This document shows, piece by piece, positions 20,932 to 50,140 of a stretch of DNA of 64,000 bases; the stretch's first letter is position 1; each line of letters opens with the position of its first letter. The notes under the pieces are model-generated. The model worked only from the letters and a program-made list of their open reading frames with translations. It ran no database searches and was not told where the DNA came from. Source of the stretch: Echinarachnius parma (Eukaryota > Echinodermata > Echinoidea > Clypeasteroida > Echinarachniidae); contig JBAMJV010007946.1 in NCBI GenBank assembly GCA_037951105.1, positions 1 through 64,000 of the forward strand, in the 5' to 3' direction. Position numbers and translations under genes: made by a program.

Positions 20932-23900
20932 GGGCCGTATGCATAAAACGTAGCAATTGCTTATAAGCAATTGCTTCAAGCACAAGCAAGAGCTTGTCAA
21001 GCAAAACAGCCATTCCATTGTGACTCGCGTGACATTTATACAAAATTCCACCCTTGTTAAGGTGAAGTACTTCAAAACTTTAAGTTGCAGATCTGTTATT
21101 TTTACATATTTCAATCAATGTATTGACCATACACATTGTTAAAAAGAAATCGTTGATTTTAAGTCATTCTTGTTGGAGATATGTCGTTTTTTCTGTTGTG
21201 ACTCGCGTGACGCCATACTATTGAAGGTTTCTGACCTTACTGTACTTGACTGGATTTTTGTATGAAAGTACTTGTCCCATTTACACCAAATTTTCTGGAG
21301 TTCATTTTGAGACATTGGGCAATAATAAGACCAAATTCTATTATCCCTTGACTTTTTGTTTCATGTCAATCGCCATTTGAAAATGTGACTCGCGTGACAC
21401 ATGATTGTGACTCGCGTGACAAGTGTCATTTTTGACTAAAAGTTGAACCAATTATCATGATTTTATAAAGTAAAATGAGCCAAATTGTTAACATAACGTA
21501 TCATTTATGGTCAGTTACATCACATACATCTTTAAAATGAACAAATTATTTAATCCAAGCTCCGATGCGAGCTCTTGGAACTTTTCTTCTTTTTTCCCCC
21601 ATTAAATTAATAGTTCTGGAAATTAGTCTTTCTTTTGCAGCTAATTTTCTTTTTCTTTCTTATTTAACTACTTTAAAATCAAAGTAAAACTTTCCCTTAG
21701 GTTTACTTGAATAAACTTGAAAGTCCCTTTGATGCACTAAGAGTCTCTAATTCTTCTTACAAATAATGTTCATATATAATCCTTTTCTGTCTTATTTATC
21801 ATTGCGATGTCTGATATTTACATAATATTGACTGGCCTTGAGTGGTATATCACGAAAGAACAAGCCAGTCAATATTATTATCATTATACATACTATCCAG
21901 AGCAAAACATAAATAAACAAAAACATACATGTTACTCCGTCTTGTTCAGTGAAGAAGACCGATGTATTGAATCTCAAATTACTGATTAAACATTTTCAAC
22001 CCACAAAGGGCCATTTGCGCGTACTATACGTAGGTGCGCAGCGATTTATGTATTCACACGTCACAATTACGCACGCGCAGAGCCATTCATACGTCATTAA
22101 TAAACGCGCGTATGAATTTGCGCACTTCCACGCTGGATTGAATATCAGCTCCATGGAAGGGTTATATCGTCTGATATTGAATGGCAAATACACATTTTGA
22201 GAGCTGCATAATACACGTTAGGATAGTAATATCATAACAATATTGAGCGCTATGACTGACAAACCCAAGACGGAAACAAATACATGTTTTATTGAATTGA
22301 AAAACTGGCCTGTCTGTGTAATAATAAAATAATTATCAACTGTTTTGTTTTCTTTGAGCAAATTACATCACTTTAGAGTTAAATCAGCTTAGCCCTACAG
22401 AAGTTGACATTCCAGATAAAATATAGATTACTTATTGTATGTATTGTATCTCTTTATTTATCAAATAATAACATTTACCTTCAATGTAATAATTAGAATA
22501 ATTTACATAAATTATTTTAACGGCAGAGTTCATTTTTTTCAAACAAATTCTCTTATTTTCACAAACTTGTAAAATGTGACTCGCGTGACAACCCTACAAA
22601 TCTTAGCATGACTTTGTTCTGGCATTTTTCATAATGAAGGGGTTTACATATGGAAATCTTCTTTGCTGGTATGATTGAGGACCCTAAGATCCTCAAAAGT
22701 TATTAATTACAATTCATACAATCTACTACTTTTGAAGCAATTCAAAATATGGACATATTTTTGTGACTCGCATGAAACATTTTGAAGGTGTTTTCCAATC
22801 TGAAATATTGTCAAGCTGGTAACATATAAATGTAAAAACCAACTTGATATGGTAAAATGGGTGTAAAATAAAACTTGATACAAAAAATGATGTATCTGCA
22901 GATAAAAGAACATGCTTTAAATAGTGTGACTCGTGTGACAACCCTAAGAAACCTTGGCGTGACTCGCGTGACATTATTGTTCTGGTGTTTTTCATAATGA
23001 AGGGGTTTACGTATGGAAATCTTCTTTGCTGGTATGATTGGGGACCCTAAGCTCCTTACTATTTATCAACTGCAGTTCATACAATCTACTACTTTTTTAG
23101 CAATCTAAAATATGGACATATTTTTGTGACTCGCGTGACACTTTTCGAGGGTGTTTTCAATCTAAAATATTGTCAAGCTGGTCGCATAAAAATGTAAAAA
23201 CCAACTTGATATGGTAAAATGGATGTAAAATAATAGTAAATACAAAAAATCATGTATGTACAGATAATGGAACATGCTTTATATAGTGTGATTTAAAAAA
23301 GTACAAAATAGGCCTAATTTTTGTAGCAAATTTGATCTCTGTTCTGGGAGATGTAACTCGGTTGTTAGAAGGTGAAAGGAGGTGAAAATTCAGATTTAAA
23401 CCCTTTGAACATATACCTAGCCAGACATGAATTTTTGTTTTGATTGGTTGAACTTAAAATGTTGAGCCCCGGGTGCCTAGTTACACGGAATGGCTGAAAA
23501 GATCAAGTTCAAGCAATTGCTTAATTTCGTATGCATAAGCTTTTGCTTGTGCTAAAACCTTTTGCTTACACTGCCTAAGCAATTGCTTACGTGTTGAACA
23601 AAGCATCGTTACGGTTGTGAGAACATCGCACTGCATGACAACAAAGGGGATTCGTAGTGTATGCAAACGTAGTGTAGTCCCTTGCATAGCAGCTTTCCCT
23701 GGTCGTGCCCGACCTGGCAACAGTATTTTTCTTATGCAAATATTTTCAAATCATGAACAAAATTGCCTACATGGATATAAATGTCTAAAATAACAGCCAT
23801 TTTATATGTAATCACAACATAACCTCTGGAACCAGGAGTTCTAAATCATCCTGAAACGGTATGAAAACTTGATTCTAAAACGCGAATGTCCTTAGTAAGC

Positions 23901-24119
23901 AAGAGCTCAAGCTGGTCTGGAGGTGCTTGAAAAAACGCAAGCAATTGTTTATCAAGACAAGTAAAAGGTTTGTCTTATGCATACGGTTTTAAGCAATTGC
24001 TTATTTGGTTGTGCTTGTAAGCAAAAGCTTTTGCTTGCAAGCAATTGCTTGTTTGTGTGCATACCGATTCAAGCAAAAGGCTAGCACAAGCAATTGCTTG
24101 TTTTTATGCATACGGCCCA
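20932..24119. mobile_element. 3.2-kb TIR element with nine GTGACTCGCGTGAC words
   Basis: Perfect 17-bp TIRs GGGCCGTATGCATAAAA at 20932-20948 and inverted at 24101-24117 (allowing for adjacent bases). ATT flanks both ends, and the sister host unit at 24205-24360 has a single ATT at the matching point. Subterminal regions are rich in AAGCAATTGCTT in both orientations. The core holds GTGACTCGCGTGAC at 21020, 21198, 21385, 21407, 22576, 22959 and 23126, plus variants at 22763 and 22926. 22590-22940 and 22940-23300 are a tandem duplication. I see no transposase ORF, so it appears non-autonomous. Confidence 0.85.
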
Positions 24120-24204
24120 TTGATACAACATTGGCAGTTTTGTTATAATTTACATTTTAAACTAAAGTTTAGTTTATGTAAATTATGTTAAAACAATTAT
24201 GTTA

Positions 24205-24360
24205 AAACAATTAATAGAACAATCGCTGACTGTATGCGCAGACCCATCGGCAAGTGACAATGACTAGAATACACAGCTAATTTAAACAACAATGCTTGCA
24301 ATTTCATTACAGTACACTGTCACACAATTGGACATTGTTGGCGGTTTGGTATATTTATAT
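24205..24360 (+). repeat. Host repeat unit B (uninterrupted)
   Basis: Sister of 20812-20931 plus 24118-24155. It contains CACACAATTGGACATTGTTG where unit A carries the element, giving a paralogous empty site. Confidence 0.8.
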
Positions 24361-24484
24361 AATATACAAATTTATAATTTACAAGACACAAATGGACATC
24401 ACAATTGCTTATTTGTTCCGATCCATCGCGGTTGCTTGTTAATCAGATCAGTGGCACAAAATCAAATACACCATCCGAAACATA

Positions 24485-24707
24485 GGCCCGTATTCACAAA
24501 GGAGGTTTGTACAAACCATGGTTCAAACCGAGGTTTACATCTATGGAATGCCAATTGTAAACTGATGGAGAGAGAATGTGTACCATCAACATTGTTAACA
24601 AGTAAGGAATTTACATTCTCGCTCCATCAGTTTACAATTGGCATTCCATAGATGTAAACCTCGGTTTGAACCATGGTTTGTACAAACCTCCTTTGTGAAT
24701 ACGGGCC
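24485..24707. mobile_element. Foldback MITE, family ATTCACAAAGGAGG (copy 2)
   Basis: GGCCCGTATTCACAAAGGAG at the left is perfectly inverted at the right. Arms of about 100 bp are nearly identical (TTGTACAAACCATGG, TTTACATCTATGGAATGCCA, TTTACAATTGGCATTCC), so it can form a long hairpin. No target duplication is evident. Confidence 0.9.
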
Positions 24708-24999
24708 AAAGTGTCTGAACAATTGTGTGGCTTTTGAGCAAAATTCAATCAAAGTGTACATTATTTCTCCTTCAGTTTAAAAATACATCCTCTTTTTCAT
24801 TAAATTGGCAATTTTTGTTTACAAATATCATTGTTATTTCTTATATTTTCATTTAACTTAAAGAGAAAGAATATACACTTTCATGTTGTTCAAAGGCTAC
24901 ATATGTTCTCAGATAATGAAATAGTACAAATATAGCGATTCAGTTTTAGACCATGTTTTAAAATTTGACACATGGTACACACACATCTCCTTATGCCTA
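24708..24999. other. Unassigned AT-rich stretch
   Basis: No coding frame, terminal repeats or tandem structure seen. Confidence 0.4.
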
Positions 25000-25575
25000 G
25001 GTCACAAATGATCCGGGCGCCGTACGATTCTTCTCCCTACGGCGGATTTTCTACGATTTTGGGAAATTGTGATATCGTACGATGTCTGTGGTATTTTAGA
25101 GTAGCAGTCACATATTCTCCGGGGCCCGTACGATGACCTTTGTCTTAAAATAAAACATAAATCGCACGGCTCCCGTGAACACAAACTTAGTGCCCGTACG
25201 GGTGCCTTACGGTGCTCTTACGGTGACTCGACGGTACCCGTACGATTTGAGTGGCCAAATATTTAGTCTCAAAATCGTACGATATTCGAAAAAATGCTGC
25301 GATGTCCGTGCTGTGCCCGTGCGATGCCCTTGCGGTGCCCGTGCGATGCTCTCTACGATGTGTCTACGGGCTTAAGGCAAGTAAAAAATCGTACGATGCA
25401 TTTTTTTTTTTTACTCCGCGTTCAACAAATTTTTGACATCGTACGGCGAGGAAAAATGCAATGGCGACCGTACGATAGCCACGGCACCCGTGCGGGCTCC
25501 GCAAGATTCCCGTAAGATTTCACTTAAAAGTGGCATCGTACGGGCGCCGTAGCCCAAATCGGAGCATTTGTGACC
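25000..25575. mobile_element. TIR element filled with CGTACGAT words
   Basis: Left end GGTCACAAATGATCCG and right end CGGAGCATTTGTGACC are inverted. Inside, CGTACG occurs at least ten times, usually as CGTACGAT or CCGTACG, along with related CTACGG and GTGCGATG words. No coding frame survives scrutiny. No target duplication is clear. Confidence 0.75.
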
Positions 25576-26011
25576 GTAGCATATGTTGTGAAATTCAGCC
25601 TAATGATTTCACATCTACTCAAGAGAGTCAAGGCAACTCCACCTTTTGGATATTCTTTGAAATGATTGAAAATGATTTGAAAAAGATCTTTGACACTTAT
25701 GAAACTACAGAAGTTGCAAATTTGAGAGAATAAAGATCCCTTAGTATCAGCAATTTATCTCTTTGTTTGTTGCTTTTCAATATGAGAAACTTAGCATATC
25801 TCTCATCAGCACTATGTGTATTTTCAACACATTAATGAAAAGAAGGTAAAAATAAGCATAATTTGTTTGATATAAGAAACAGCAAAATATTACAAATTCA
25901 CCCCAATTCATTGACCACCAACAACAAAAAATGGTAGAAAACATGGAACATAAATATGAATAAATATTTAGCTGCCAATTTAGTGAAAATAGGAATCACA
26001 GAACTTGTAAC
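25576..26011. other. Stretch between CGTACGAT element and sialidase exon array
   Basis: AT-rich and likely intronic for the minus-strand sialidase locus. From about 25950 it belongs to the tandem unit that surrounds each exon fragment (GCTGCCAATTTAGTGAAAAT). Confidence 0.4.
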
Positions 26012-26083
26012 CTCTTGCCAGGGATAGATGCATCCACGTGGATATCTCCCCATTCGATCTGTTTCTCCTTTTCCTTGTCCTCC
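26012..26083 (-). pseudogene. Sialidase exon fragment (3' half), copy 4
   Basis: On the minus strand it encodes EDKEKEKQIEWGDIHV, then DASIPGK, matching the last third of the intact exon at 26305-26533. The donor reads GAG|GTTACA instead of GAG|GTAAGT, so splicing here is probably weak or lost. The flanking intron sequence (TTTAGTGAAAATAGGAATC) is copied too. Upstream exon sequence is absent. It is best explained as a decayed tandem copy. Confidence 0.75.
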
Positions 26084-26166
26084 CAACAACACAATGGCTG
26101 TAAGCTTGGATTATATATATGAATAAAGCTGCCAATTTAATGAGAATAGAGATCACAGCAAATTAC

Positions 26167-26222
26167 CTCTTGCCAGGGATAGATGTGACCACATGGATGT
26201 CTCCCCATTTGATCTGATACTC
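26167..26222 (-). pseudogene. Sialidase exon fragment (3' end), copy 3
   Basis: On the minus strand it encodes YQIKWGDIHVVTSIPGK followed by AG|GTAATT. It corresponds to the last 18 residues of the intact exon. The downstream intronic flank (GCCAATTTAATGAGAATAGA) is also shared. It begins abruptly at about 26222 without an acceptor. Confidence 0.75.
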
Positions 26223-26304
26223 CCATTTAAATAATGGTTGAAAATAAATATTAACATGTAAAGAAGGTTGCCAATTTAAAGATAATAGAGATCACAGAAC
26301 TTAC

Positions 26305-26533
26305 CTCTTGCCAGTAATAGATGCGACCACGTGAATGTCTCCCCATTCGATCTGCTTGTCCTTTTCCTTGTCCTCGCGCAGCTTGCCTCTCCTCAGGACC
26401 AGGTCCATGTGGGACCCCCAGTCCCGGAACGAGGTCTTCCTAGCCTCGCAGAAGGCCAGGAACACCCCTTGGTGGTAGACCAGGGCTGGGATGCGGAACG
26501 AGCTGTAGCCATTGTCACCCTGCCCAAACACCT
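26305..26533 (-). CDS. Sialidase (NEU2/3/4-like, GH33) internal exon
   Basis: One spliced exon of an exo-alpha-sialidase, an enzyme that removes terminal sialic acids from glycoconjugates. It starts after CTCTCTTCCAG and ends AAGAG|GTAAGTTC, so both splice sites are canonical. The 229 bp encode VFGQGDNGYSSFRIPALVYH, then GVFLAFCEARKTSFRDWGS and MDLVLRRGK, ending QIEWGDIHVVASITGKR. FRIP supplies the first arginine of the family's catalytic triad. The Asp in FRDW lines up with the catalytic Asp of NEU2. LVLRRG and WGDIHVV match NEU2/3/4 rather than NEU1. Phase in is 1 and phase out is 2, so the exon length is not a multiple of 3. Flanking exons (the next should start near SMNPCP) were not found in the window. 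Whether the locus is an intact gene is unknown. Only the exon call is secure. Confidence 0.88.
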
Positions 26534-26776
26534 CTGGAAGAGAGACAAGAGAGGAAACAGAATGGAAAAAATATTACTTAAAAGTATGCTCCCAAAGAAG
26601 TTGAGATGGTGTACAAGATACATGTAATTTTGCAGGTTTGAACTGTACCTGATCACCAAGGGAAATGATAATGCTATAGCAGGTAAGAACCCTATATAAA
26701 TGCAATCTAGTAGACTAATATAGTAAAGTAAATGTCCTCTGAAAGACCAACAGCATGTTACCAAAGACCCACCATC

Positions 26777-27019
26777 AGGGATGCTAGTGGCAAATAGCGC
26801 CAGGGCCTGAAAATTTGTGGAGACTCAAAATAATGCGCGCGAAGCGCACATTACGAGCGCGAAGTCCCTTTAGCTGGGGTCCAGATGCTCTCTGGTGCAA
26901 TCTGAGCCTATTTGGGGGATCATATACCCTACAAAAAATATTTAATTTTTTGAGCTGGAATTTGTGTAAAAAAACGGAAAAGCCGGAATTCCGGCTATAG
27001 CCGGAACTCTGGCATCCCT
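26777..27019. mobile_element. Small element with AGGGATGCYAG ends
   Basis: Left AGGGATGCTAG and right CTGGCATCCCT are inverted ends. The interior has GCGCGAAGCGC, and paired CCGGAATTCCGG and GGCTATAGCC palindromes near the right end. It lies between sialidase exon copies 1 and 2. Confidence 0.6.
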
Positions 27020-27040
27020 GCACTATTAATGGACAAAGCA

Positions 27041-27129
27041 CAAAGGCCAGGAACACTCCTTGGTGGTAGGCCAGGGCTGGGATGCGGAATGAGCAGTAGC
27101 CATTGTCACCCTGACCAAACACCTCTGGA
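27041..27129 (-). pseudogene. Sialidase exon fragment (5' half), copy 2
   Basis: After CTCTCTTCCAG it encodes VFGQGDNGYCSFRIPALAYH and QGVFLAF, then homology stops at 27041 and the frame runs into unrelated sequence. The acceptor and the FRIP motif are intact; the catalytic Asp region, the second half and the donor are gone. The AGGGATGC element begins about 20 bp further on and may be linked to the break. Confidence 0.8.
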
Positions 27130-27245
27130 AGAGAGACAGGAAAGAATTGAACAGATTGTATACTTATTACTTAACCCCTTGCTCAACAAGACATTGCATT
27201 ACATCCATCTATATGAGTTAATACATGCATGGTTTGGGTACACTA

Positions 27246-27387
27246 GGGCCCTGTTTCATAAAATGTTTCCAATTATTGTAACTACCAAAGCAACAGCTAG
27301 AAAGCTTGATGCTGATCGGCTGTTGCCATAGTAGTTACCACAATTAGACACTTACAACAATTGGAAAAGTTTTATGAAACAGGGCCC
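27246..27387. mobile_element. Foldback MITE GGGCCCTGTTTCATAAAA
   Basis: Inverted termini GGGCCCTGTTTCATAAAA; inner arms include TCCAATTATTGTAA and GTAGTTACCACAATT. 142 bp, noncoding. Confidence 0.85.
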
Positions 27388-27534
27388 TGATTCTGTGGTA
27401 TAGAATGACAGCATATTAAACAAACCACATTACCACATACTGATGGGGGAGAGTAACAGAGCAAAGCAAAATAATTTTAGCTGATTAGAGCCACAAAAGT
27501 AATCTCTTAAACTCATGATTAGTTTACAGTACCA

Positions 27535-27861
27535 TATAGAGTACAGAAGCCATGACGTCATAAAAAAATTTTAAATTTGAACTCCAAATGTCCAAATACC
27601 GAAAATAAATCAAATATATTACGTATTGGCTGAGATATGCCCATCCGAATGATGTTATGAACCAGTGCACTATCACTGATTGCCCATTGACAACAAAAAT
27701 CATTCGGATGGACATATCTCAGCCAATACGTAACCTATTCAATTGATTTTCGGTATTTGGACATTATTTGTTATGCTCTTTCTGAAAATGAAGTCCAATT
27801 TTGAAGAGAAAAAAAAGATGTTCATGACATCATTGATGACATCACACTTCACCACTCTATA
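27535..27861. mobile_element. Foldback element, TATAGAGT ends (copy 1)
   Basis: TATAGAGTACAGAAGCCATG at the left and an inverted TATAGAGTGGTGAAGTGTG at the right. Long inner arms with ATTGGCTGAGATATGCCCAT and CATTCGGATGG. Sister copy in opposite orientation at 30784-31158. Confidence 0.85.
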
Positions 27862-28029
27862 CATTGTTTTGAGATGTACAACATGTACATGCAGGGCCTA
27901 TACACTACTACACACGATTTTGATTTCCAATGTAAATTTAGCTCACAGTTACTGTTATGGGGAAGTAAATATTGTGAAATGTTAAATTAGATCCTCATAA
28001 AATCCCATAGTTGGCAAGACAGACTTAGC

Positions 28030-29110: not shown

Positions 29111-29149
29111 GGTGAGTCTGATATTCACTGCTTGCCACTCAGTAGATGA

Positions 29150-31748: not shown

Positions 31749-32363
31749 TCAACCCATTGGCTACATGAACCTGGTGGGTCCGGTATTAACTCTATGGGGA
31801 TTGCAAAATCCAGTAGGGAACAGGTTAACCCATTGCCTATGGGAGCCTGGTGGGTCTTGTATCAACTCTATAGGGATTGCAACATCTAGTAGGGAACAGG
31901 TTAACCCATTGCCTACATGAACCTGGTGAGTCCTGTATTAACTCTATAGGGATTGCAACATCTAGCAGGGAACAGGTTAACCCATTGCCTACAGGAACCT
32001 GGCGAGTCCTGTATCAATTCTATCTAGGGATTGCAAAATCCAGTAGGGAACAGGTTAACCCATTGCCTACATGAACCTGGTGAGTCCTGTATTAACTCTA
32101 TAGGGATTGCAACATCTAGCAGGGAACAGGTTAACCCATTGCCTACAGGAACCTGGCGAGTCCTGTATCAATTCTATCTAGGGATTGCAAAATCCAGTAG
32201 GGAACAGGTTAACCCATTGCCTACATGAACCTGGTGAGTCCTGTATTAACTCTATAGGGATTGCAACATCTAGCAGGGAACAGGTTAACCCATTGCCTAC
32301 AGGAACCTGGCGAGTCCTGTATCAATTCTATCTAGGGATTGCAAAATCCAGTAGGGAACAGGC
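31749..32363 (+). repeat. Minisatellite, eight 75-79-bp units with a 154-bp higher-order repeat
   Basis: Units TTAACCCATTGCCTACAGGA, CCTGGTGAGTCCTGTATTAA, GGGATTGCAACATCTAG, CAGGGAACAGG. From about 31900, two unit types alternate (TAACTCTATAGGG and CAATTCTATCTAGGG), giving a near-perfect 154-bp dimer repeated three times. Overlapping frames ending in REQVNPLPT are artefacts. Same family as 1205-1712, opposite strand. Confidence 0.95.
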
Positions 32364-32471: not shown

Positions 32472-33239
32472 GGGCCATTCTTTGAAAAGTGAAACTTTTT
32501 CGGAAAAATTGAAGTTTTATTTTTCTGTAGTTTTGTTCCATTTTTGGAATGATCCATGTGTAAAGTTTCATGAAATACATGATTTGAAGTTTAAAATGAA
32601 ACTTTTTTACTCATTTGCATAAATTTACATATTTCAATATTTTTCTAATAATCATAATTCAGAAAATAATCAAGATATCAAAAGGATAATTAACAAGCTC
32701 ATTCTTCTCACTTTCTTGTACAGGTTGATACCAACTTTGTAAAAATTCAACCTTTCATTCTTTTCTAAACCCGATATTATAAAATTCCCATTTTTCCATT
32801 CATATTGTACATGTCACACACGTGACCACCCCAAAATGTCACACACGTGACCAGACGTTGCCACATAATTAAGTACTATAAAGAACAACGGTTTGATATA
32901 ATTCTCATTCATTGCTATTGTTGTACTTACAAATGTATAGTACTTCTCTGGTAATAAGATGAACATTATAGCTATTCATATTTTAAAGAATTTTCCAAAT
33001 GAAATTTAGTTATGAAAAAAGCGCTCCGTGCGAAGTCACACACGTGACCCATGCCATTTGACCTCTGACATTGAGTTACGTAATCCTTATAAAATCTTTT
33101 GTGTTAAGTTTGAAAGACTACAACATATTCAAGTCACATATGAAGTAAAAATCATTATAGTCTCATACTTACTGAAATATAAGCATCCCATTTCAAAATT
33201 TGTCATGTTTTGGGTCACACACGTGACCAAGAATGGCCC
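32472..33239. mobile_element. 0.77-kb TIR element with four GTCACACACGTGAC words
   Basis: TIR GGGCCATTCTT at 32472-32482 and inverted at 33229-33239. GGTA flanks both sides, consistent with a 4-bp target duplication. GTCACACACGTGAC occurs at 32813, 32838, 33035 and 33214; the last abuts the right TIR. No ORF of note. Confidence 0.8.
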
Positions 33240-34741: not shown

Positions 34742-34742
34742 A

Positions 34743-38315: not shown

Positions 38316-39118
38316 GCCCCCTCACTACGGCCAATCAATGGCAAATGAATACCACTCAGTATTTTGTGTAAGGGCTGGCAAAAACTTGCGTGGGCTGCAG
38401 TCAGTGTCAGAGCCCAGTTTGACTGATTGGGGGGGGGGGGGGGGCACACAAATTAACAAATTATTGGGGGGAACTAGAACACCCTAAAGTTGAACATTCA
38501 AAGATTGTTTGCAGACTCTGCACCCTGCCCTTTGTAAAATTTATTTTTGGTGTATTGGGGGGTGGGGGGGGGGGGGGGCACCTGGGAAGCATAGGGCACT
38601 GGTTTTTTTAAAGATGCCAAATGTGTCAACCAACATGGTCAAAATTGAAATTAAGTGAACTAACTTCAAACATGTTTTTTTAACATTGACACAACTTATA
38701 TTTTCGTGAAATATAAATATCTGGGCTTAATCTATCCCCAATTCTGCAAAATATCTATGAACATTTAGGATTTCCTGTATTTAAAAGAAAAATATGATAA
38801 TTTTCACATTGCCATACTAAAATCCTACTATTCCAAATGGCATTACAAATAATACAAATAATTAAAGTGGGCTTCTGACATCATGTGTGCCATTTTGGGG
38901 GCTTCTGTTTCTTAAATTTTAGTTTTTAGGTCATTTTAAAGTGAAAAATAGCCTTAAAATTTGGATTTTGCAATTTGAAGTTTTTATAATGCAAATTTTT
39001 TTTACTGTTGTTGGTTCAAACTTATTGTATGGAAACAATACATGATAGGACATATTTACATGATATAAAATTGGAGCAAGACACTTGCAAAAAAAATTCA
39101 AATTTGATTCTTGTATGT
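38316..39118. other. Stretch with two poly-G tracts
   Basis: Poly-G tracts at 38431-38444 and 38564-38578, each followed by GGCACA or GGCACC. The rest is AT-rich and is possibly the left part of the GTTTCGGACGTTAC region, whose left end I could not place. Confidence 0.5.
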
Positions 39119-41695
39119 GTTTCGGACGTTACACATTGTTAACATTTACCCTTTTTTCACACTTCTATGACCAGTTGTGGTTTAAATCTTTGCTGTTTTG
39201 GAATATTTAAATACAGAAAGTATATGTTTAGATGTAAATCTATCCAAATTCTTCTTCGAAATGGTCAAATTAACTTCATAGCACAGAAAGGGGTCTTTTA
39301 TCAACCATATATGACATTATACATTACAGTACATGTAAATTTGATTTATCTATAATTATGTTCAGATCTCCAAAGTAGAGACAATTTTAAGGGTTTTAGT
39401 GAAATTATGAAGTACCTAGTACTACAATAACTACAATTTGAGAATTGTGATCTATAATTTATTGTAGCAAAGTTGCATTATGTTATGACATACCCTATTT
39501 TGTTTCGGACGTTACATGGTGTTAACATCACTTCAAAACATATCTTAACTCGCTTTGTTTGCATGATTTTGCAAGCAAAACCCATAAATATGTGCATTAA
39601 TTGAACTCCCAAGGAAAGGGATAGTGAATGTAGTCCATATTGATAGACAAAATCCAAGATTTTGTACAAATATTACATGCAATTAGAAACTGTTATTATA
39701 TACCGTCAAAGGATGATCGATGTGACTTTCCAGAGTTTCCTTCATCATTTTACAAAAGATAAAAGTATATGTACATTATTGTACAATGACATACATTGTA
39801 TATGATTTAAATTTTCCATTTTCTTATTTTGATAAAATATGAAGCTCAAACTAATATTATCAAACTATTATCGAAAATTAGAATAACTGTCAGAAATGCA
39901 TTACTCATATTAGCAAAACCTCAAATTCAAGTTATAATGGCACATGTACAGTACACTTGTGTGTACCACATAAGGTTACAGTCAAGAAATTATATTTGTT
40001 CCAGCAGATATGGTTATATTTTTCAAAGTTGACTTGCACAAAAATGTAATTGATCATAAACCAGTAATGTTCTGGAAATTGTCTTAAGAATATGATAAGG
40101 AATTATCTTGGTGTACATGTACCTATAGTTTACATGGCATATGCCATATAGTATTTCAAAAGTAACTTTCGTTTTAACATGTGGATTTTTTTAATACAAA
40201 TGATTAACATTTTAATTATTGTCAGTAAAACATGTGGATCAACGCAGATTATGTTCTTCTTATCAAGTTTAAGTATGGAAAAACATATTTTGCAACTAAT
40301 GAATGATACCAGAAGAGTAAATTTAGCATAGTTATACTGTACTTTTGTATACCACTAAAAGGCTTTGTTAATGAAAATGTCTATATTTCCACTAAATGAA
40401 TAATGAAACAGAGACTTAACATTTGTTTCTTATAGAACATTATAAAGGCAATCAACCTAATAATGCATTTGATGTGATACAAAAAACAAAATCAGTATAC
40501 ATGTAGTTCTGTGTACTTTACAACATGAACAATTATGGGGCAAAAATAGCAATTCCTCACATGTTATAAATAAAAGTTCCTTCCCAGAGACAAATAACTG
40601 ATCATTTATTTTTCAAAACACTTTTGCTGGAGCAGGAAGCATATAGATCATGAAAAATGCAGATAATACTTTTTTAAATGTTCCAAATTGAATTTTTTGT
40701 GCAATCAAAATGTGTGTTAACACCATTTTGTAACGTCCGAAACGAGCTCACAATACCATACAAAAGATTCTGTAAATGGTTAACAAAATACAGGAGTTGT
40801 TGTAGCAGGTAGTGTTTCAGTTCCACAAAAGAAAGGTTATTGTTCTAAGTTGATTAGTCATATCATTCACTATATCAAGTGTCTTGTAAAACTTTAGTGG
40901 TTACAAATTAGCTGAGAAAAATCGATGACAAATTGGTGAAAATGTGGATTTGGGGCAGACTAAGCATCTAAATGTTGTTAAAGCATCATGTATTTTGATG
41001 ATTATGTTTCATTTACTTGATCTAAATGAATAATAATAACCATATATTATCATTTTGAAAATAAATGCACCAAAATATCAATTTTGTGTTAACAATTACC
41101 CCATGTAACGTCCGAAACACATTTGTTTACATTGGTTGATCTCAAACATTTGTTTTGGCAATTAATTACCCAATTCATGTGTAAATTTGTTTTAAAATGA
41201 ATACTATTTTATATTATGATGATTGATTCATATAATGTGCCCTTTCCTGTGACTTATGAGCTTATAAGTTACATTTTTTGTTTCGGACGTTACATTTGTT
41301 TCGGATGTTACAAATGTTAACGGAAAGTTAATTTTGAATATATAATCATAACGCAATGAGCTATTACATTTTTTTTTTCTGTGATGGGAAGGTACATCAA
41401 GTCTCTTCAAAACTGAGATAAATAATTGTTTGTGTTATCCCCCTTTTAAAAATTATTTCTAAAGAAATATTGTTTCGGACGTTACACAATTGTTAACGGA
41501 AAATGAGAGCATGTGTGCATTTCATGTTTTTTTTTTTTTTAATCACTGGCTTAAGAAATCAGTCATTTCCCTTTTAGGCAATATGATGAGGAAACTGTTA
41601 GTTCAATTTTCATACTGATATCATTTCAATAAATTATGATACTGGTAGGGGTAATGAGGGGTTAAATTGTTAACGGAGGATGTAACGTCCGAAAC
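39119..41695. mobile_element. Region with eight GTTTCGGACGTTAC words, termini unresolved
   Basis: The word occurs forward at 39119, 39502, 41280, 41298 (one change) and 41472, and reversed at 40730, 41105 and 41682. GTTAAC or GTTAACGGA lies within 40 bp of most copies. Between them is AT-rich sequence with no long ORF. A possible right terminus is the GGGCCAATTGTTAACGG complement ending near 41889. No matching left end was found. Confidence 0.65.
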
Positions 41696-42059
41696 ACCAA
41701 TTTTGATGGCATTGTACTGTCAAAATATTACTTTACATATTAAGCGCCGTTAATTTTCTGAAAGTTTAACTCACACTCGTTCATAATTTTTAACAAATAA
41801 AAAAAGAAAAAAATCTGTTAGTGTTTTTTTATACCTGAACATAATTGAACCCATTTTTGGTTGACAAATTTCCGTTAACAATTGGCCCTTTAGGGTTATC
41901 TGACCTATATAAAGGGAAGTCCAAATATTTTCGTTAAGGTATGGGAGATCAATCTAGGTGGATGCTATAAGAAAATACAAAAATAAGTTTTCAGTTCAGT
42001 ATGTTTTTAAAAATACAGGCCCTCAAAGTGCCATTAAGCCTTTTGGCACCTTTAAAAAA

Positions 42060-42135
42060 ACCAGAGCCATAGGCAATTTTTGGAGAACACATTGCCCCCC
42101 CCCCCACCCCACCCCTCAACTACACCCCTGCTGGG
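42060..42135. repeat. Poly-C tract with CACCCC flank
   Basis: CATTG followed by a C run and CACCCCACCCCTC at 42092-42115, then CTACACCCCTGCTGGGCTG. Resembles the C-rich edge of other elements here. Confidence 0.6.
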
Positions 42136-42562
42136 CTGTTTAGTACTCCCAACATGCACTGTTCAAAGGTCAATTACATTTGAACTTGGTACATTGCCCT
42201 TAATACTTGCCGTAAAATCATATGAGATGATTATTGGATTTAATTTTTTTTAATGAAAAAAAATATTCATCGTTAACTTACATACTCGAAAAAGCCATTT
42301 GAACATGAACATTGCCCTTAATTGCCATAAAATTGTCAAACACATGGGGATGATTAAATGCGTTTTAACCAAATCAAATCTTCTTCTTAGAAAGGTTACA
42401 TGATAAACCCATTCTGAGTCTGAGCCTCACCAGGCTGGCAAAATGTTACCTGACATTAATGGAGAAACCATGTTAGAAGTTCACTAATTTATGCACTTGT
42501 TACTGGTGTATTGTAATACATTGTGCATGTGTGAGAATGTGTAATGTGTGTATATTACTTTG

Positions 42563-43130
42563 TTAAAGGGCAATGAAACCCAAGCAAAATGTTGCTTTCA
42601 TAGTCTTGAAGAGATTAAGATCTTGAATAATCTCTGAAAGTTAGAGCATAATCGGGTAAGAAACAAGAAAACTACGGCTCTTTGAAGATGTCCATTTATT
42701 CCTATGGGGAACTCAAATTGGCAACGCACTCTGATAAGTGTGTGGACAACTCCCCATATGTTTTGTACACAAATGTTCCCATTTTTACAGTTTTCTTCAT
42801 AGTCACATTTTTCCATTCCCCCAACTCATGATATGTTATGTATAAAAGCATTCTACAAAACATATGTTGAACTCGAACGAAGGGTAAACATAAATTTTGA
42901 GAAAATTGAACAAAACTGAAATTTTGTGTACAAAATGTATGGGGAGTTGTCCACAACTTTGCCAGAGAGCGTTGCCAATTTGAGTCACTCGAAGAAATAC
43001 ATGGCTCTTTTCAAAGAGCCATAGTTTTCTTATTTCTTGACCGATTGTGCTCAAATTTTCAGAGACTATTCATTATATTTAGTGTCTTATAGTGCACACA
43101 ACAATTTGTCTGGATTTCATTGTCCTTTAA
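42563..43130. mobile_element. TTAA foldback MITE, AGGGCAATGAAACCC ends
   Basis: TTAA at both ends; AGGGCAATGAAACCCAAGC at left, TCTGGATTTCATTGTCCT at right. Long inner arms: GTGGACAACTCCCCATA with TTTTGTACACAAA against its complement at 42918-42955, and AGAGCCATAGTTTTCTT at 43015. Nearly the whole 568 bp can pair. Confidence 0.85.
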
Positions 43131-43143
43131 CTGGTGGTGGAGA

Positions 43144-43286
43144 GGATATCACGGAATGTTCAACTCCGAGGGTTTTAAATGCTATTGAGGGAAGATTATA
43201 AGTCCCGAGATGTAGTCGAGGGACTTATTTTCTTCACGAAATAGCATTTAAAATCCCGAGGATTAGAACATTCCATAATTTTCCTG
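43144..43286. mobile_element. Foldback around CCGAGGGATTTTAAATGC
   Basis: CGGAATGTTCAACTCCGAGG and GTTTTAAATGCTATT pair with AATAGCATTTAAAATCCCGA and GGATTAGAACATTCC. A central GTCCCGAGATGTAGTCGAGG hairpin. Confidence 0.75.
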
Positions 43287-43389
43287 ACAACAAAGTTAAC
43301 AAAGTTCTGTTATCATCTGATTGTTTAAATTAAAACGAATTGAAATCATAATCCGTTTCGTGGACGTTGGGTTTTTCACTCACTCGACT

Positions 43390-43415
43390 CACACACACAC
43401 ACACACACACACACA
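43390..43415. repeat. (CA)n microsatellite
   Basis: Thirteen CA repeats. Confidence 0.95.
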
Positions 43416-43831
43416 AGTCATCTCGCAATGCAACAAAGCACACGGTCGATTTTCATACCTAATTTCCCTCTCTCCGCAATAATATCTCAACATGTTCCGA
43501 TTACTGCATTTCTATATTGGAAATATGTGTTGATTGTTTCCTTCGATTATGTTAATCAGGTAATTATCTGTTCAAGTGTACTGGAAATCGCTGATTTTCG
43601 TTTGTATTTAGTGGCTGCGAGCCCGCTGCGAGAAGAACGATTATCGCACAGTACGGTACGGTACCGTACGTCCTGGTTGGTGTACATTTTGTGTAATGTT
43701 GATTGAATGGCAGGTGGGTGTCATACCTCCCCGAAGCAGTGTCATACCAAATTGACACCCCATCCATGAACTGTGTTTAGCCAATCACAGACGCGTATTT
43801 TACTAAGTCAGATGATATAATGTATTGCTCT

Positions 43832-44162
43832 TTAAAGGGGACTACCACGCAAAGAACAACACCATCAAAAAGATGTCTAACACCTTGCAAAGGGTTGTGC
43901 TATGCAATGCAATTAATCACTGAGACTAACGGAACCAACATGGCCGATGGTTCCGTAAGTGCTAAACGTTTGTGAGAGCGCCAATTCTAACCCGCGTACG
44001 TCCTAGACAATGGTCTAGTCTTCATGATCTGGGTTTAAAATTGTATAATTTGTCTGGAAACAAATTTCTCTGAACTTGTTCAGGGGAATGGACCATTAAA
44101 ACTATTTACCATTAGATTTCATTTATCAGAATATATCATTTTTGGGTGGTGGTACCCTTTAA
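43832..44162 (+). mobile_element. TTAA MITE, family AGGGGACTACCACGC (copy 3)
   Basis: TTAA at both ends; AGGGGACTACCACGCAAAG at left and TTTGGGTGGTGGTACCCT at right. 331 bp, the shortest intact copy. Confidence 0.85.
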
Positions 44163-44479
44163 GGACTTTTAGGACTGTGCCATGCTCATTGAATGTATGC
44201 ATCTATTGCTATTAGCGCAATGGACAGACACAATTATTGATCAATTCTGGTCTATAAATAACCCTCTGCACATTAGAAGCTGACCACAAATGGAATTTCA
44301 AATTTGATTTGATGCCTACTACACATCTAGATCAAGTTACTGGCCCCAAAAGTCCATTTCATGAGTAACCTTTTATATCACTCTTCCCTGATCAAACCTA
44401 TAATTATAGATGAAGCATGACATGTAAAAAACAAGATTATTCTAATTTTGTCAATGTCTGATTGAAAATCTGCTTGCCT

Positions 44480-44579
44480 GATCGTGCCACCAAAATATGA
44501 CTTTTGTACATTTTTGCTGGCCCGAAGTGCAATTTCACTGGCCCCTGGCCAGCGGGCCAGTGCGAGTGTCGAGCCCTGG
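44480..44579 (-). mobile_element. GGCCAG-word repeat end (GGGCTCGACACTCG)
   Basis: Minus-strand start GGGCTCGACACTCGCACTGG, then GGCCAGGGGCCAGTGAAATT and GGGCCAGCAAAAATG. Matches the left part of 13720-14066. Confidence 0.6.
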
Positions 44580-44596
44580 TTTAACTGTCTAGATAT

Positions 44597-44846
44597 GTGA
44601 CCGGTTATAGCAAAACCTTGCACTTGTCGGTAAAAATCAAAAAGTAGATTTTCATACCATTAGGAAGGCATCATCACAAGATTTCAATTGATGCTTTGTT
44701 CTAAGAAATTGGTCAATAATTGGCGATGATTGTTTCAATTTTACAATCATATAGGTCTTTTACACACGTTATGTGAACTTAAAATGCCCATTTCTTCAAA
44801 ACATGAATTACCGACAAGTGCAGGGTTTTGCTATATAGCGTGTCAC
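44597..44846. mobile_element. Foldback element, family CACTTGTCGGTAA (copy 3)
   Basis: GTGACCGGTTATAGCAAAAC at left; GGTTTTGCTATATAGCGTG and TCAC at right. ATAT flanks both ends, consistent with a 4-bp target duplication. Confidence 0.85.
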
Positions 44847-45024
44847 ATATTGTCAACTTTTTACATTCACAGACAGAAAAGTTATGATAATCTTTCACAT
44901 CGTCAGGGATAAAAAGTGCATATTTTTTTAAAATGTTGCTTGGGGTGTTTCCTAAAACTATTGTTTAGCTCTAAAAATAAACGTCAGTACTACACAGCAC
45001 TGTAATCAGTATAAGTTGCTTGAC

Positions 45025-45040
45025 CCCCCCCCCCCCCCCC
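45025..45040. repeat. Poly-C tract
   Basis: Sixteen consecutive C. Confidence 0.9.
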
Positions 45041-46537
45041 TACAATGTAAACTAGTAGTATGGGCAAGTGGCAATGAAGTTACCAATTCCATTTAAACCA
45101 TTCAGGACTACATTGTAAGTCACAAAGATATTTGGGCTACGGCAATGATAGAAATAAACTTTTGTGCCTATACACATGCAAGTAAAACAAGAATTTTTAA
45201 AATTCTAATGGCCTGAAACCCCAAACAAAGAAAAAAACAAATATTAACAAATTACTATTATAACTGGTTGCCTGTATGAGCCTGTATGTAACAATGAAAT
45301 TAGGTGCCCCATTGCTAATTTTGAGTTACCCCGGGTCAGTGGGCCTAGATGCTAATTTCAAGTAATGGCTAGGGTCTATGGGTATGCATGTTGCATGATA
45401 CTGATATTATATGGGCAATTCCGTGGTAACGGAATTACAATTCAGAGAAATTTTGCTCATTCTTTTTCATAATATGGATTAGTCCTATGACCTAAAGGCT
45501 TATCAACACTTTAATAAGTTCTGGAGATATACCTGCTGTCATATAGAAACAAAAATATGGAAATTTCATACATGAGGAAAGTGCTAGCACGTATGATACG
45601 TCGGTAACGGAATTACGGCAGAGAATGGGCCTTTTTTCCCACATTCAACTTTCACATGAATTCCTCTGAAATTTAAAAGACATTTTGTGTAGATTTATTT
45701 TAAAATTCATTGCTATGGGTGTCAACTTCATGATAACATTCATTTTTTCCTTTATGTTCATCTTGTTTGGTCGTAACTGACCATGTTTCAAAAAAAGGCA
45801 GCGGTAACGGAATTACATAAATGGTAACGGAATTACGCCTTCTGAAATTTACCTTAAAAAGTTTAATTTTTTGAATACCAGATAAGCTAAAATCCCTTTA
45901 AAATGTTATTTTTATGTTCAAACATTTATAAAAACCAAAATGCAAGATACTTTTATGCCAAATTATGAAGTAATATTTGAATACGCCTGCTTAATTTGTT
46001 AATTTGGTAACGCAGTGTGAAATTTCTAAAAAAAATAACTATTTGTATTTGCAAAATTCAAGTCAGTCTTCGTTTACATAGTCCTTGTTATCAAACTCTG
46101 CAGTCCTGGCTCAAATCAATGGTCACATATTTCTCTATTTATACTAGAAAGCTATCTAATGAACATGGTAACGGAATTACACTAGTAACACTGCTTTGTC
46201 AATTATCCACAAATTATTCTAAACTATACGTATCCATTGGATAAATATCACTTCTACCAAAGTATTTCATACACATATACTACAAAAACACTTTTTTGAT
46301 CATGTACACTTCCTTATATTATGCAATTTGGACAAAACAGATTGGGAAGCAAGTGCTTAGCAGAACAATAAATCAAAGTCAGATGTCAAATGATGCATGT
46401 ATCAAGGGTAACATGAATTGCTTGAAGTATATCATGCAATACACAATGTGTACAACTTGATATTATAATTCAGAAAACCCTGGGAAGACTTATACATTCG
46501 ACATGTACTAACAAAGTATGTAACCATGCTGGTAAGT

Positions 46538-46975
46538 TTAAAGGGGACCACCAGGCAAAGGACAACACATTATTATATGTTTTGGTACCGTTTTGTGATA
46601 TCAAATAGATACCCGACATTTTGCAAAGGGTTTTGTAATTCATAAACAAATCAATTAATTTCCACCACTTACGGAACCACTGCTATTTCTTGGTTCCATA
46701 CGGGCCAAGCATTTGCGAGTGCGCCAATGCTTTCACGCGTACGTCAATAGAATCCCGGATGATTCGTTCGCTCTGCACAGAGCGCTCTGGCTCTGCACGC
46801 ATACAGTCTTTGCAATTCAGACCGCATGAAAACATGGTTGAGAATGGTGATGCTTTTTCCAATTATATATTTTTTTCTGAAAACATATTTTTGTGAGCTT
46901 GTTGAAGGAATGGAATACTAAATATGTTACCTTTCTATAATAAGAATATTATTTTTGGGTGGTGGTACCCTTTAA
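46538..46975 (+). mobile_element. TTAA MITE, family AGGGGACCACCAGGC (copy 4)
   Basis: TTAA at both ends; AGGGGACCACCAGGCAAAG at left and TTTGGGTGGTGGTACCCT at right. The paralogous site at about 48335 (GACAAGTCAAATGGCCAGC) lacks it. Confidence 0.9.
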
Positions 46976-47170
46976 TGGCCAGCACGGATAGGGTTCAATC
47001 CTATTGTCTGAATGTTAATACCAATAATTCTGGGAAGTTAAAAGCCAGGAAACTATTTAGTATGTTATGAGTAATTATATGAAGGAAAGTGTATCTCTTC
47101 TGTCCATTTGTGGCTCATTGAGGGTATCTATGATATGCTATTAGACCTGTAAATAATGTCTACCTGTATG

Positions 47171-48001
47171 TAGTGCTGTTATCCGATCCGATCCGAGAAG
47201 GGAATTCCCGGCGAACATGGCCTTCAACCGGGAAATTAGCGGTCCGAGAAATGGCCCTTTTTTTCTATAATTCTCGTTTTGGCAACCCATTTTTTTCAGT
47301 AATAATAACAAATTTGTATACTGTACATATAAGAAAAAAATGGGATGAAGTAATTTGCAGTAGGTATGACAGATTTACGACTTGTGGCTAGGACCAGGAG
47401 CAGAGAAGGTCACAATGTTTAAACAGGTTGAGCCTTGAAGTCAATTACCTGAATTTGTGCAGAGCTATACAAAGGGTTTAAGGAGAATGCCCCCACCTGT
47501 TGGAAAGCTTACCCCCAGCCTTTGAATATACTTTTTTAGTCTTTTTCTTGACTCCCACAAACATATATTGTGAACTGGCTTTTCATGTGTATGCTTTATT
47601 GAACATAACTATACACAAAAAAAAACACATAACTCTGCCCCAAACACTGGCACACCCCCAAAATAAATGACCCCAATGCTGCCGCCCATTTTTTTGGGAC
47701 AAACTTTTTAAACATTGTGTTTCTTGTAGTCATAAAAAATTCGCCCAAACATGATCTTACACAGGCCCTGAGTTCACATGTGGTTGTGAGTTTGGTATAT
47801 ATGCATGCCCACTGAACCTTGGCTAATATATATATATGGTATGTCTCCTCATAACTCCCCAAAATAGCAACTGTGTGTGCATGGGTACAGACAGCGTTTT
47901 TGTTCATTCACAAGGGAACCGGGACGAACCGGGACCCGTTAATCATTTTTTATTTCTACGAGCCGGGATCCGAGACGGGATATTTGTTTTACCTAACAGC
48001 A
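47171..48001. mobile_element. Element with GATCCGAGA/CCGGGA words
   Basis: Left TGCTGTTATCCGATCCGATC and right GAGACGGGATATTTG...CCTAACAGCA are loosely inverted. TACCTGTATG flanks both ends (47161-47170 and 48003-48012). GAATTCCCGG, CAACCGGGAA, GGAACCGGGACGAACCGGGA and GCCGGGATCCGAGA words cluster at the two ends. 103 minus-strand codons inside show no known family. Confidence 0.55.
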
Positions 48002-48532
48002 TTACCTGTATGCCATCTACTAAATTGTTCTAAATTAAACTCATCCATCTGATCAAAATCACTACTACTGAAGAATACTACCAAGACACTTTTTTGATCA
48101 TGTACACATACTTGATGCAATTTGGACATAATACATTGTTAGAAGCATGTACAAGAACATTAATTTATAGTCAGAGATAAGGTGATACATGTATCAGGGA
48201 TACAATTAATTGTTTGTAGTATATTATGTAATGCACAATGTGTACAACTTGATATTAAAGATGTTTAAGTTTTAAAAATCCTAAACTTATTTATAAACTG
48301 TACTAACAAAGTATGTTACAATACTGACAAGTCAAATGGCCAGCAAGGATAGAGTTCAATCTTATTGTCTGAACTTTAATTCATCAGCAATAATACTGGC
48401 AAGCTACATTTTAAAGCCAGTGAATAAGTTAGCATGATACATGCATTTATATGAAGAAGAGTATATATCTATTCTGTCTGTTTGTGGCTCTTTTACATAT
48501 CTAAGACCTGTGAATAATGTAATTGGCCCGAA

Positions 48533-48970
48533 TTCTCAAATCAGTAGCTCAACTTGAGCTTGACTTAAAAAGACAAAACCTACCGGTAGCAATATTCACC
48601 AGTAGACCTATTGTGTAGTTCCTGTATGGTGCTATAATATTTGAATGGTTTCCTTTCATTATCTAGTCAATCCCTTGAGTTCTGATATTAGGCAACAGGG
48701 CAATGGGCCCTTTGAAATATAGCTGAAGTATAGTCTGTCATCAGCCCAATTGTGTCTGGATCATCCTGGACATTTGCAGGTGACCTCTTATAATATTGAC
48801 AGAATTTCAAAGGGCCCATTGTCTTAATGCTTTTAAGCAGAAGCAAGGGATTGACTAGATAATGAGATGAAACTTTATACTAAATACTCCTGCTGGCGCA
48901 AAGTGGTACTGGTAGTCTTGGTCTTTTTAGACCAATCTCAAGTTGAGCAACTGATGATATTTCAAGCCAA
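48533..48970. mobile_element. Foldback element TTGGCCCGAATTCTC
   Basis: Left arm TCAGTAGCTCAACTTGAG then TTAAAAAGAC; right arm GTCTTTTTAGACC then CTCAAGTTGAGCAACTGA. Inner arms CTAGTCAATCCCTTGAG with GGGCAATGGGCCCTTTGAAA, and the complement near 48810-48862. Confidence 0.75.
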
Positions 48971-48972
48971 AG

Positions 48973-49256
48973 TCATCTACTATGTGGCCAACCATACTTC
49001 TCTGGTACTGTTTGCTTCAATAATTTGACAGTAATGTTACTATCCACAGCTTCTATCACTTGGCCAATTAATTTGTTGGCATTGTTTTCTTTGCAGTGTT
49101 GAAATACCACCATTTCAATTTGAGGTCCTCCATGCCGCTGCTGCTGACATTGCTAATATAGACTGTGTTGTTGCTTTTTCCTCTTTTCTGAGTGTTCTTG
49201 CTGTTATCTTAGACACTATCTTCCTCAATACTACCTGCAGTCTTAGACTTCAACAA
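48973..49256 (-). pseudogene. Possible frameshifted coding remnant
   Basis: On the minus strand, 49140-48973 encodes GGPQIEMVVFQHCKENN, NKLIGQVIEAVDSNITVKLL and KQTVPEKYGWPHSR before TGA. Upstream, in a frame shifted by one base, 49246-49120 encodes LRKIVSKITARTLRKEEKA and TTQSILAMSAAAA. The two parts read as one protein with a single frameshift. I do not recognise the family. It lies inside the GTAACGGAATTAC element and could be the relic of its protein, a captured exon, or chance. No start codon or other exon was identified. Confidence 0.25.
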
Positions 49257-49260
49257 GGGG

Positions 49261-49577
49261 AGGGTGTTGGGGTTGGGTGATCTATTTTTTTTTTTCTTGC
49301 CAAAGACTGCAAGATTTTGTTTGTTTATACTTTGTGAAAACTATGCCTGACATATATGTTTAATAGATAAACTGTTTCTCAACTATTTTTATGGCAAAAG
49401 AACAGAAGGTCATAAGAGAGGATCTATCTCATTTGATATCTTCCTTTATATTCATAATTTGTTTTTACTCATCAGAAGTTGGATTTTGTTTTCCCCCCTG
49501 TATGCAGGTGGAGTTCCTTTCTTTCAAAAACTTCCTACCCACTTTGAAGTCAAATTAATGTTGCGTCCCCTACCGAT
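49261..49577. other. Interior of GTAACGGAATTAC element
   Basis: AT-rich with a T12 run at 49286; no word copies, no coding frame. Confidence 0.4.
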
Positions 49578-50140
49578 GTAATTCCGTTACCGGTGTAATT
49601 CCGTTACCATGTAATTCCGTTACCGATGTTTTCATAGAAATGGGTGAAGATATTAAAGAATTGGGTGTTTGGGATTTCAAGGACACATATTTTAGCATTG
49701 GATTTACAATTACAGAATAATTCATCAATATTAAAGTTCTTTAAAAAAACTTTCTTGGAATTTCGGTAACGGAATTACATACAAATTGGAGTAGATTTGG
49801 TCATTCTGTCCAGCAAATATTGGTTCCGGTTGGAACAAGTGCTTTACAAAATAAGAAGATTATCCATATACTAGTATAACTGCAAAGTATACAAAGGAAT
49901 AAGTTCAGGGATCAATGATTTATTGATTTGGTATTGAATTTAGTCATTTTTTCAATTCTGAAGCCTAGAAAACACAAAAAGTTCAAACACTGCTTTCAGA
50001 AAAACAGATTAAGTTATTCACAAACGGTCTTCTATTCACTAATATATAGGACGTTGTCCACCCAAAACATGCTTTGAAATTGTATTTCATAAACTTTTAA
50101 ATTTTCCATTTTTGGCCTCTCTCATCCGGAATTGCCCATA

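What the first reader, a model, noticed from the sequence alone, without database searches (positions are those of the whole stretch)
20932..50138. Four separate loci each filled with their own 13-14-bp word of shared layout GTNNC-N(3-4)-NTNAC
Seen: GTGACTCGCGTGAC (9 copies, 20932-24119), GTCACACACGTGAC (4, 32472-33239), GTTTCGGACGTTAC (8, 39119-41695), GTAACGGAATTAC (9, 45411-50138). Each word stays in its own locus, is nearly invariant, and lies in otherwise diverging AT-rich sequence. All begin GT and end AC, as two 5-bp halves around 3-4 bp. Three of four loci have TIRs starting GGGC. Known: CACTA, hAT and other DNA transposons carry repeated subterminal sites bound by their transposase. 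Inference: these are non-autonomous elements whose word is a site for a diversifying family of DNA-binding proteins, multiplied through the interior and kept by selection or gene conversion.
Basis: partly seen in the sequence, partly recalled or inferred. Interest (0 to 1): 0.9.

Follow-up and report, generated by a model that had tools for sequence, protein, structure and literature searches.

The report
Jumping-gene chassis with swappable address words
Four DNA 'words' seen in one stretch of an animal genome mark families of protein-less jumping genes; most families built on such words place them at nearly the same distances from the element's ends while the word itself changes as a set, which looks like a swappable address read by an unseen mobilising protein.

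Summary
The four word clusters are real. Each lies in a non-coding element with short terminal inverted repeats; 32 of 33 elements with both ends read have exact 4-bp target duplications. Six words (four given, two found here) occur 27,069 times exactly in the 1.2-Gb genome, against 107 for the same words read backwards.

New result: in seven families the word lies at about +14, +192, +390 and +408 from one terminus; in five of them also near 360 and 515-526 from the other. F1/F1b and F4a/F4b share a word although their spacers are largely unalike. F4c carries a changed word at all nine sites of the complete copy read; F5, found by a blind scan, has another word on the same grid.

Corrections: only two of four termini start GGGC. 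F1's TIR is CAGCCATTCC, nested in another element; F3's is GGCACTGG, and F3 does not fit the left grid.

Most likely the words bind a transposase or helper supplied in trans, as in Sleeping Beauty IR/DR ends. No autonomous partner or transposase was found; the superfamily is open.

The parts
21007..23496 (+). F1 element, 2490 bp, TIR CAGCCATTCC/GGAATGGCTG, TSD AAAA
   Evidence: TIR and TSD in the window; 10 further complete copies in the genome, 9 of them with an exact 4-bp TSD and one (L020) with 3 of 4
21020..21420 (+). F1 left-end words GTGACTCGCGTGAC at 21020, 21198, 21385, 21407 (+14, +192, +379, +401)
22576..23139 (+). F1 right-end words at 22576, 22763 (2 mismatches), 22926 (1 mismatch), 22959, 23126 (908, 721, 558, 525, 358 from the right end)
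32472..33239 (-). F2 element, 768 bp, TIR GGGCCATTCTT, TSD GGTA; its right end is the gridded end
32813..33227 (-). F2 words GTCACACACGTGAC at 32813, 32838, 33035, 33214 (+414, +389, +192, +13 from the right terminus)
   Evidence: same 25/197/179 steps in most clusters of the listed genome places
38595..42068 (.). F3 element, 3474 bp, imperfect TIR GGCACTGG/CCAGAGCC, TSD ATAG
   Evidence: inverted arms, sequence, shared left boundary with L050, TSD
39119..41695 (.). F3 words GTTTCGGACGTTAC at 39119+, 39502+, 40730-, 41105-, 41280+, 41298+ (1 mismatch), 41472+, 41682-; a GTTAAC follows each at a short distance (for the close pair 41280/41298, once after the second word)
   Evidence: does not fit the left-end grid
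45413..50137 (+). F4a element, 4725 bp, TIR GGGCAATTCCG, TSD ATAT
   Evidence: five further complete copies
45426..46180 (+). F4a left words GTAACGGAATTAC at 45426, 45604, 45804, 45824, 46168 (+14, +192, +392, +412, +756)
49578..49778 (.). F4a right words: 49578-, 49595-, 49611- (548, 531, 515 from the right end) and 49766+ (360)
20932..24118 (.). Outer host element of F1 (TIR GGGCCGTATGCATAAA, AAGCAATTGCTT palindromes); not part of the word system

Best explanation
Shown: the words are repeated sites inside non-coding DNA elements with short TIRs and 4-bp target duplications. Seven families share one left-end grid (about 14, 192, 390 and 408 bp from the terminus), five of them also sites near 360 and 515-526 bp from the right end, while the word differs between groups of families and is nearly uniform inside each. 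Inferred: the words are pseudo-palindromic (GTNAC-like half sites) binding sites for the DNA-binding part of a transposase or helper made by autonomous relatives that I did not find. The site at +14 places the protein for cleavage; the inner sites, about 178 and then 197 bp further in with a close pair, recruit more subunits and pair the two unlike ends, as inner direct repeats do in Sleeping Beauty. Spacing is kept because the protein-DNA complex needs it; spacer sequence drifts. When the protein's specificity shifts, all sites of a successful lineage are replaced, so that each clan carries one word as its address.
For: 32 of 33 exact 4-bp TSDs. Four left sites present in 28 of 32 complete elements (F1 9/11, F2 1/1, F4a 6/6, F4b 6/8, F4c 1/1, F5 5/5). 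Site positions vary by sd 0.3, 1.3, 4.1 and 4.5 bp across seven families. Right site at 358-361 in 27 of 31 non-F2 elements. Same word with largely unlike spacers in F1/F1b and F4a/F4b. Changed word at all nine sites of F4c. F5, found without using a word, falls on both grids. Within elements, flanks of sites are near chance. A terminal word copy lies 13-14 bp from the end in all seven families.
Against: No autonomous copy, transposase or binding data. Word columns are no better kept than spacers between copies of F1. F3 shares word type and TSD length but not the left grid. The +14 site is imperfect in F4b (1 mismatch in 8 of 8) and F5 (2-3 mismatches in 5 of 5), and F1b L019 lies at 14/164/350/371 and the F1b right site at 328 in L026. 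Some other family pairs give spacer z up to 2.9, close to F1/F1b (3.3, 2.4), so ancient common descent of the whole left end is not excluded.
Confidence: 0.72

Rival explanations
1. Host-factor sites: the words bind host proteins (silencing, nucleosome positioning, replication), one per linker at a nucleosome-like pitch, and are not read by a transposase.
For: Steps of 175-200 bp recur in all families including F3; every word holds a CpG, against 21% of 13-bp stretches of the window.
Against: Different families in one genome use different words, and one copy sits 13-14 bp from the cleavage end in all seven gridded families; a host factor would be expected to keep one word.
Confidence: 0.13
2. 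Decayed tandem array: about 180-bp tandem units duplicated long ago and the words are what is left of them; spacing is inherited, not selected.
For: Pitch near 180-200 bp; F1 still holds a 350-bp tandem duplication at about 85% identity (22575-22929/22925-23291); F4c repeats the 179-180/197-198 steps internally at +615/+795/+993.
Against: Flanks of sites inside an element are near chance; sites also come in pairs 14-25 bp apart; the positions are fixed to the terminus across families with different words.
Confidence: 0.08
3. Homogenisation only: gene conversion among the copies of an element spreads a word without any protein reading it.
For: Uniform words within families and concerted replacement in F4c.
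Against: Conversion tracts of 13-14 bp with flanks near chance are unlikely, and conversion does not explain positions shared by families with different words.
Confidence: 0.04

Closest known systems
Sleeping Beauty and other IR/DR Tc1/mariner elements
   Same: Several direct transposase sites per end, one at the terminus and others well inside; all sites needed for synapsis; activity raised by CpG methylation (passages of PMC7827188)
   Different: Two sites within a TIR of about 220 bp at each end and TA target duplications there; here four sites over about 410 bp at one end, other positions at the other end, 4-bp TSD, and a word exchanged between families
Ac/Ds and En/Spm (subterminal AAACGG and TNPA sites; recalled, no call)
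   Same: Many short CpG-holding subterminal motifs in direct and inverted order bound by a transposon protein
   Different: Motifs there crowd a few hundred terminal bp without a position grid shared by families; termini and TSDs differ
Sola2
   Same: 4-bp AT-rich target duplications and short TIRs (passages of PMC3627910)
   Different: AWWT targets there; 8 of 32 exact TSDs fit AWWT here; no Sola transposase seen; no word grid in the passages read

Membership tests
Non-autonomous cut-and-paste DNA transposon (general) | Short TIRs and a target duplication of fixed length | tested here: met
   32 of 33 exact 4-bp TSDs, the other 3 of 4
Non-autonomous cut-and-paste DNA transposon (general) | No transposase gene inside | tested here: inconclusive
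   No ORF of 150 aa or more inside the window elements; 10 of the stop-free stretches from elements scanned against Pfam, no family above its cut-off; not all stretches were scanned
Tc1/mariner (Sleeping Beauty type) | TA target duplication | tested here: not met
   4-bp TSDs of many sequences; TA rule from PMC10045372 passages
Tc1/mariner (Sleeping Beauty type) | Several transposase sites per end | not testable with these tools
   Sites are present by sequence; binding cannot be tested
PHIS (Harbinger, ISL2EU, Pangu, Nuwa) | 2-3-bp target duplications of set sequence | tested here: not met
   against PMC4482050 passages
hAT | 5-8-bp target duplication | tested here: not met
   range from PMC4482050 passages
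CMC/CACTA | CACTA-like termini (recalled); 2-4-bp TSD | tested here: not met
   Termini are GGGC, CAGCC or GGCAC; the TSD length alone would fit
piggyBac | TTAA target (recalled) | tested here: not met
   TTAA in 1 of 32 exact TSDs
Sola2 | 4-bp AT-rich TSD (AWWT) | tested here: inconclusive
   Length met; AWWT in 8 of 32
Sola2 | Sola2 transposase | not tested
   No reference protein at hand and no autonomous copy found

The most novel reading that the evidence does not exclude
A modular 'chassis plus address' transposon system: one ancestral, position-fixed array of sites is shared by many families, and the recognition word is exchanged as a unit at every site together with the specificity of its protein. 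One genome thus holds several mutually orthogonal transposition clans built on one architecture, with the CpG in every word possibly making binding methylation-sensitive.
Probability: 0.35. Interest if true: 0.82.

Novelty: new variant of a known kind. Interest (0 to 1): 0.64.

Why it matters
How a DNA-binding protein changes specificity when many sites must change together is an open question. If the words are protein sites, one genome here holds a series of words on one fixed grid (GTAACGGAATTAC, GTAACGGAAGGAC, GTAACGCCGTGAC, GTGACTCGCGTGAC, GTCACGTGTGTGAC), a natural experiment in concerted site replacement. The fixed positions hint at the geometry of an unknown transposition complex. The grid is also a word-independent way to find and classify elements that carry no transposase.

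Tried and rejected
Chance or artefact: rejected by genome counts against reversed words and by the spacing scan. Simple tandem repeat: flanks differ. The outer GGGCCGTATGC repeat as F1's end: rejected, since other F1 copies end at CAGCCATTCC with a TSD. GGGCCAATTG at 41888 as F3's end: rejected, since two other copies continue past it. Autonomous partner: I followed longer or odd copies (L009, L014, L016, L042, L046, L052, L053, L054). They hold later insertions or foreign sequence (in L016 an F4b element; in L042 retroelement-like reading frames, my reading of the ORF text) and I saw no transposase-like frame; only 10 stretches, none from L042, L046 or L052-L054, were scanned against Pfam, with nothing above a cut-off. 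Pairing F1 left and right ends by place (the tool scored 40 of 98 and 40 of 91 candidates) pointed to C3580, which carries an insertion. Relatives elsewhere: one scan of viral contigs, 0 hits. Printed mention of the six words: 0 papers in one full-text search of the held library. Searches for multi-site elements with a 4-bp TSD brought up no paper recognisable as describing the grid; of their hits and the papers named, passages of four were read (PMC10045372, PMC4482050, PMC3627910, PMC7827188), the rest only as listings.
Full report
Observation. All four words are present with the stated counts. Inside each locus the words are 95-100% identical while the 25-bp flanks are near chance (23-32%). 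An unprompted scan for dispersed 12-mers puts the F4, F1 and F3 words first; F2, with four copies, stands among a few other 4-5-copy words. The genome is held (1.2 Gb, 14,790 contigs). Exact copies, both strands, with the reversed word as control: F1 575/4, F4 6800/19, F5 3121/7, F3 1617/9, F2 6021/24, F4c 8935/44; together 27,069 against 107. Copies cluster: of the 100 places listed for F2, 99 have another copy within 415 bp (my count from the capped list), mostly at the same 25/197/179 steps. For F1, 93 of the 100 listed places have an exact neighbour in their cluster (my count).

Element ends. F1 is 21007-23496 (TIR CAGCCATTCC), F2 32472-33239 (GGGCCATTCTT), F3 38595-42068 (imperfect GGCACTGG/CCAGAGCC) and F4a 45413-50137 (GGGCAATTCCG). 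Of 33 elements with both ends read (F1 11, F2 1, F3 1, F4a 6, F4b 8, F4c 1, F5 5), 32 have an exact 4-bp TSD and one matches 3 of 4.

Positions. Measured from the terminus, left sites are F1 14/192/379/401; F1b (L017) 14/191/387/408; F2 (its right end) 13/192/389/414; F4a 14/192/392/412; F4b 14/195/391/412; F4c 14/193/390/404; F5 14/194/391/405. Standard deviations over the seven are 0.3, 1.3, 4.1 and 4.5 bp. Of 32 complete elements, 28 have all four left sites (third site at 372-392); the exceptions are F1 L016 and L020 and F4b L029 and L030. The +14 site is imperfect in all 8 F4b copies (1 mismatch) and all 5 F5 copies (2-3 mismatches). A right site lies at 358-361 in 27 of 31 non-F2 elements; the others are L021 at 365, L049 at 367, L046 at 319 (my arithmetic) and L041 none. 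The next right site lies at 519-532 in F1, F4b, F4c and F5, on the same strand, where present; in F4a it lies at 515-516 on the opposite strand. Exceptions to tell: a second F1b left end, L019, is at 14/164/350/371; the F1b right end, read only in L026 and L027, has its site at 328 in L026, and F1b has no verified TSD. F3 does not fit the left grid (374, 584, 758 and 776 from its right end), though its left-end distances 525 and 908 equal two of F1's right-end distances.

Word-free scan. Looking for any 12-mer repeated, with at most one change, at 173-185 and again at 178-205 bp with unlike flanks gave 38 hits in 317 kb on both strands. 33 of them lie directly behind an element terminus (L042 and L010 overlap and show one element twice); one is a tandem array at 58320. 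A single mononucleotide shuffle, one strand, gave 0. Most loci were fetched because they hold words, so the independent part is the window itself (F1, F2 and F4 found, F3 not, one false hit) and nested elements that came along unasked: F4b in L016, F4c in L014, L029 and L030. F5 was found by a blind scan for dispersed words.

Word replacement. F4a and F4b share GTAACGGAATTAC with weakly alike spacers (z 4.5 and 5.8); F1 and F1b share GTGACTCGCGTGAC (z 3.3 and 2.4). The other 13 family pairs give z from -1.4 to 2.9 against mononucleotide shuffles, so faint common descent of whole left ends is not excluded. The complete F4c copy carries GTAACGGAAGGAC at nine sites and no copy of the F4a/b word. 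Read as half sites the words are GTNAC-like inverted repeats (by eye). All six contain a CpG, against 21% of 13-bp stretches of the window.

Decay. Between 11 F1 copies, word columns are 95.2% and spacer columns 93.8% conserved. Of 31 mutations in 97 F1 word instances, 19 are CpG transitions, 10 or 11 of them one inherited change at the site 558 from the right end. So individual copies are not policed; constancy comes from the lineages that transpose.

Mechanism. Shown: elements, TSD, sites, positions, word numbers. Inferred: a trans-acting DNA-binding transposase or helper reads the words, the terminal copy placing it for cleavage and inner copies building the synaptic complex. The nearest working parallel is the Sleeping Beauty IR/DR (passages of PMC7827188), whose activity rises with CpG methylation, perhaps because compact chromatin brings distant sites together; the 178-198 bp pitch here invites the same idea but does not prove it.

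Classification. The TSD length speaks against Tc1/mariner, hAT and the described PHIS groups (passages of PMC10045372; PMC4482050). By length alone Ginger, MuDR-like, CMC and piggyBac elements would fit, but the termini or target do not fit CACTA or TTAA (both recalled). Sola2 has AT-rich 4-bp TSDs (passages of PMC3627910), but its AWWT fits only 8 of 32 here, and no protein was found. I leave the superfamily open. A MAP3K-like gene beside an F1b copy fits an animal genome.

Limits. Genome letters were limited: 46 regions were read, chosen mostly from the first 100 places of contig-ordered lists. Words are counted genome-wide, elements are not. The absence of an autonomous copy is therefore weak evidence, and only ten stop-free stretches from elements were scanned for domains.

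Noticed in passing
window 20932-24118: Outer element around F1 with 16-bp perfect TIR GGGCCGTATGCATAAA and many AAGCAATTGCTT palindromes near its ends; TSD is ATT or, if the TIR starts one base later, CATTG. The same palindrome recurs in L027 2697-3247.
   Followed up: partly
L029 3984-6476; window 41865-41888; L031 2470: Terminus-like sequence inside elements: F4c has a second 179-180/197-198 set of words at +615/+795/+993, F3 an internal GGGCCAATTGTTAACGG, F4b an internal GGGCAATTCCAC, as if ends had been duplicated inward.
   Followed up: partly
L016, L029, L030, L017: Elements of one clan sit inside elements of another (F4b in F1, F4c in or beside F4b, F5 in F1b), which orders their activity in time.
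   Followed up: partly
L009, L011, L012, L014, L015, L016, L018, L020, L024 against F1 position 706/707: Relative to these copies the window's F1 lacks about 31 bp at one point; L009 has about 2.1 kb and L014 about 1.8 kb at the same point.
   Followed up: no
window 31751-32362, 52400-52980, 57902-58384, 62153-62656: Tandem arrays with units of 76/154, 32, 59 and 16/129 bp.
   Followed up: no
window 24474-24718, 42562-43131, 48523-48970, 59857-60445: Long self-complementary stretches (65-90% over 250-630 aligned bases), likely fold-back elements.
   Followed up: no
window 56470-56544: tRNA-Ala (AGC) gene on the minus strand; 20407-20536 is 83% alike to 56459-56588 and may be a tRNA-derived repeat.
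   Followed up: no
L046 960-5956: About 5-kb insertion in an F5 copy with a 2-bp overlap at its ends and no long reading frame.
   Followed up: no
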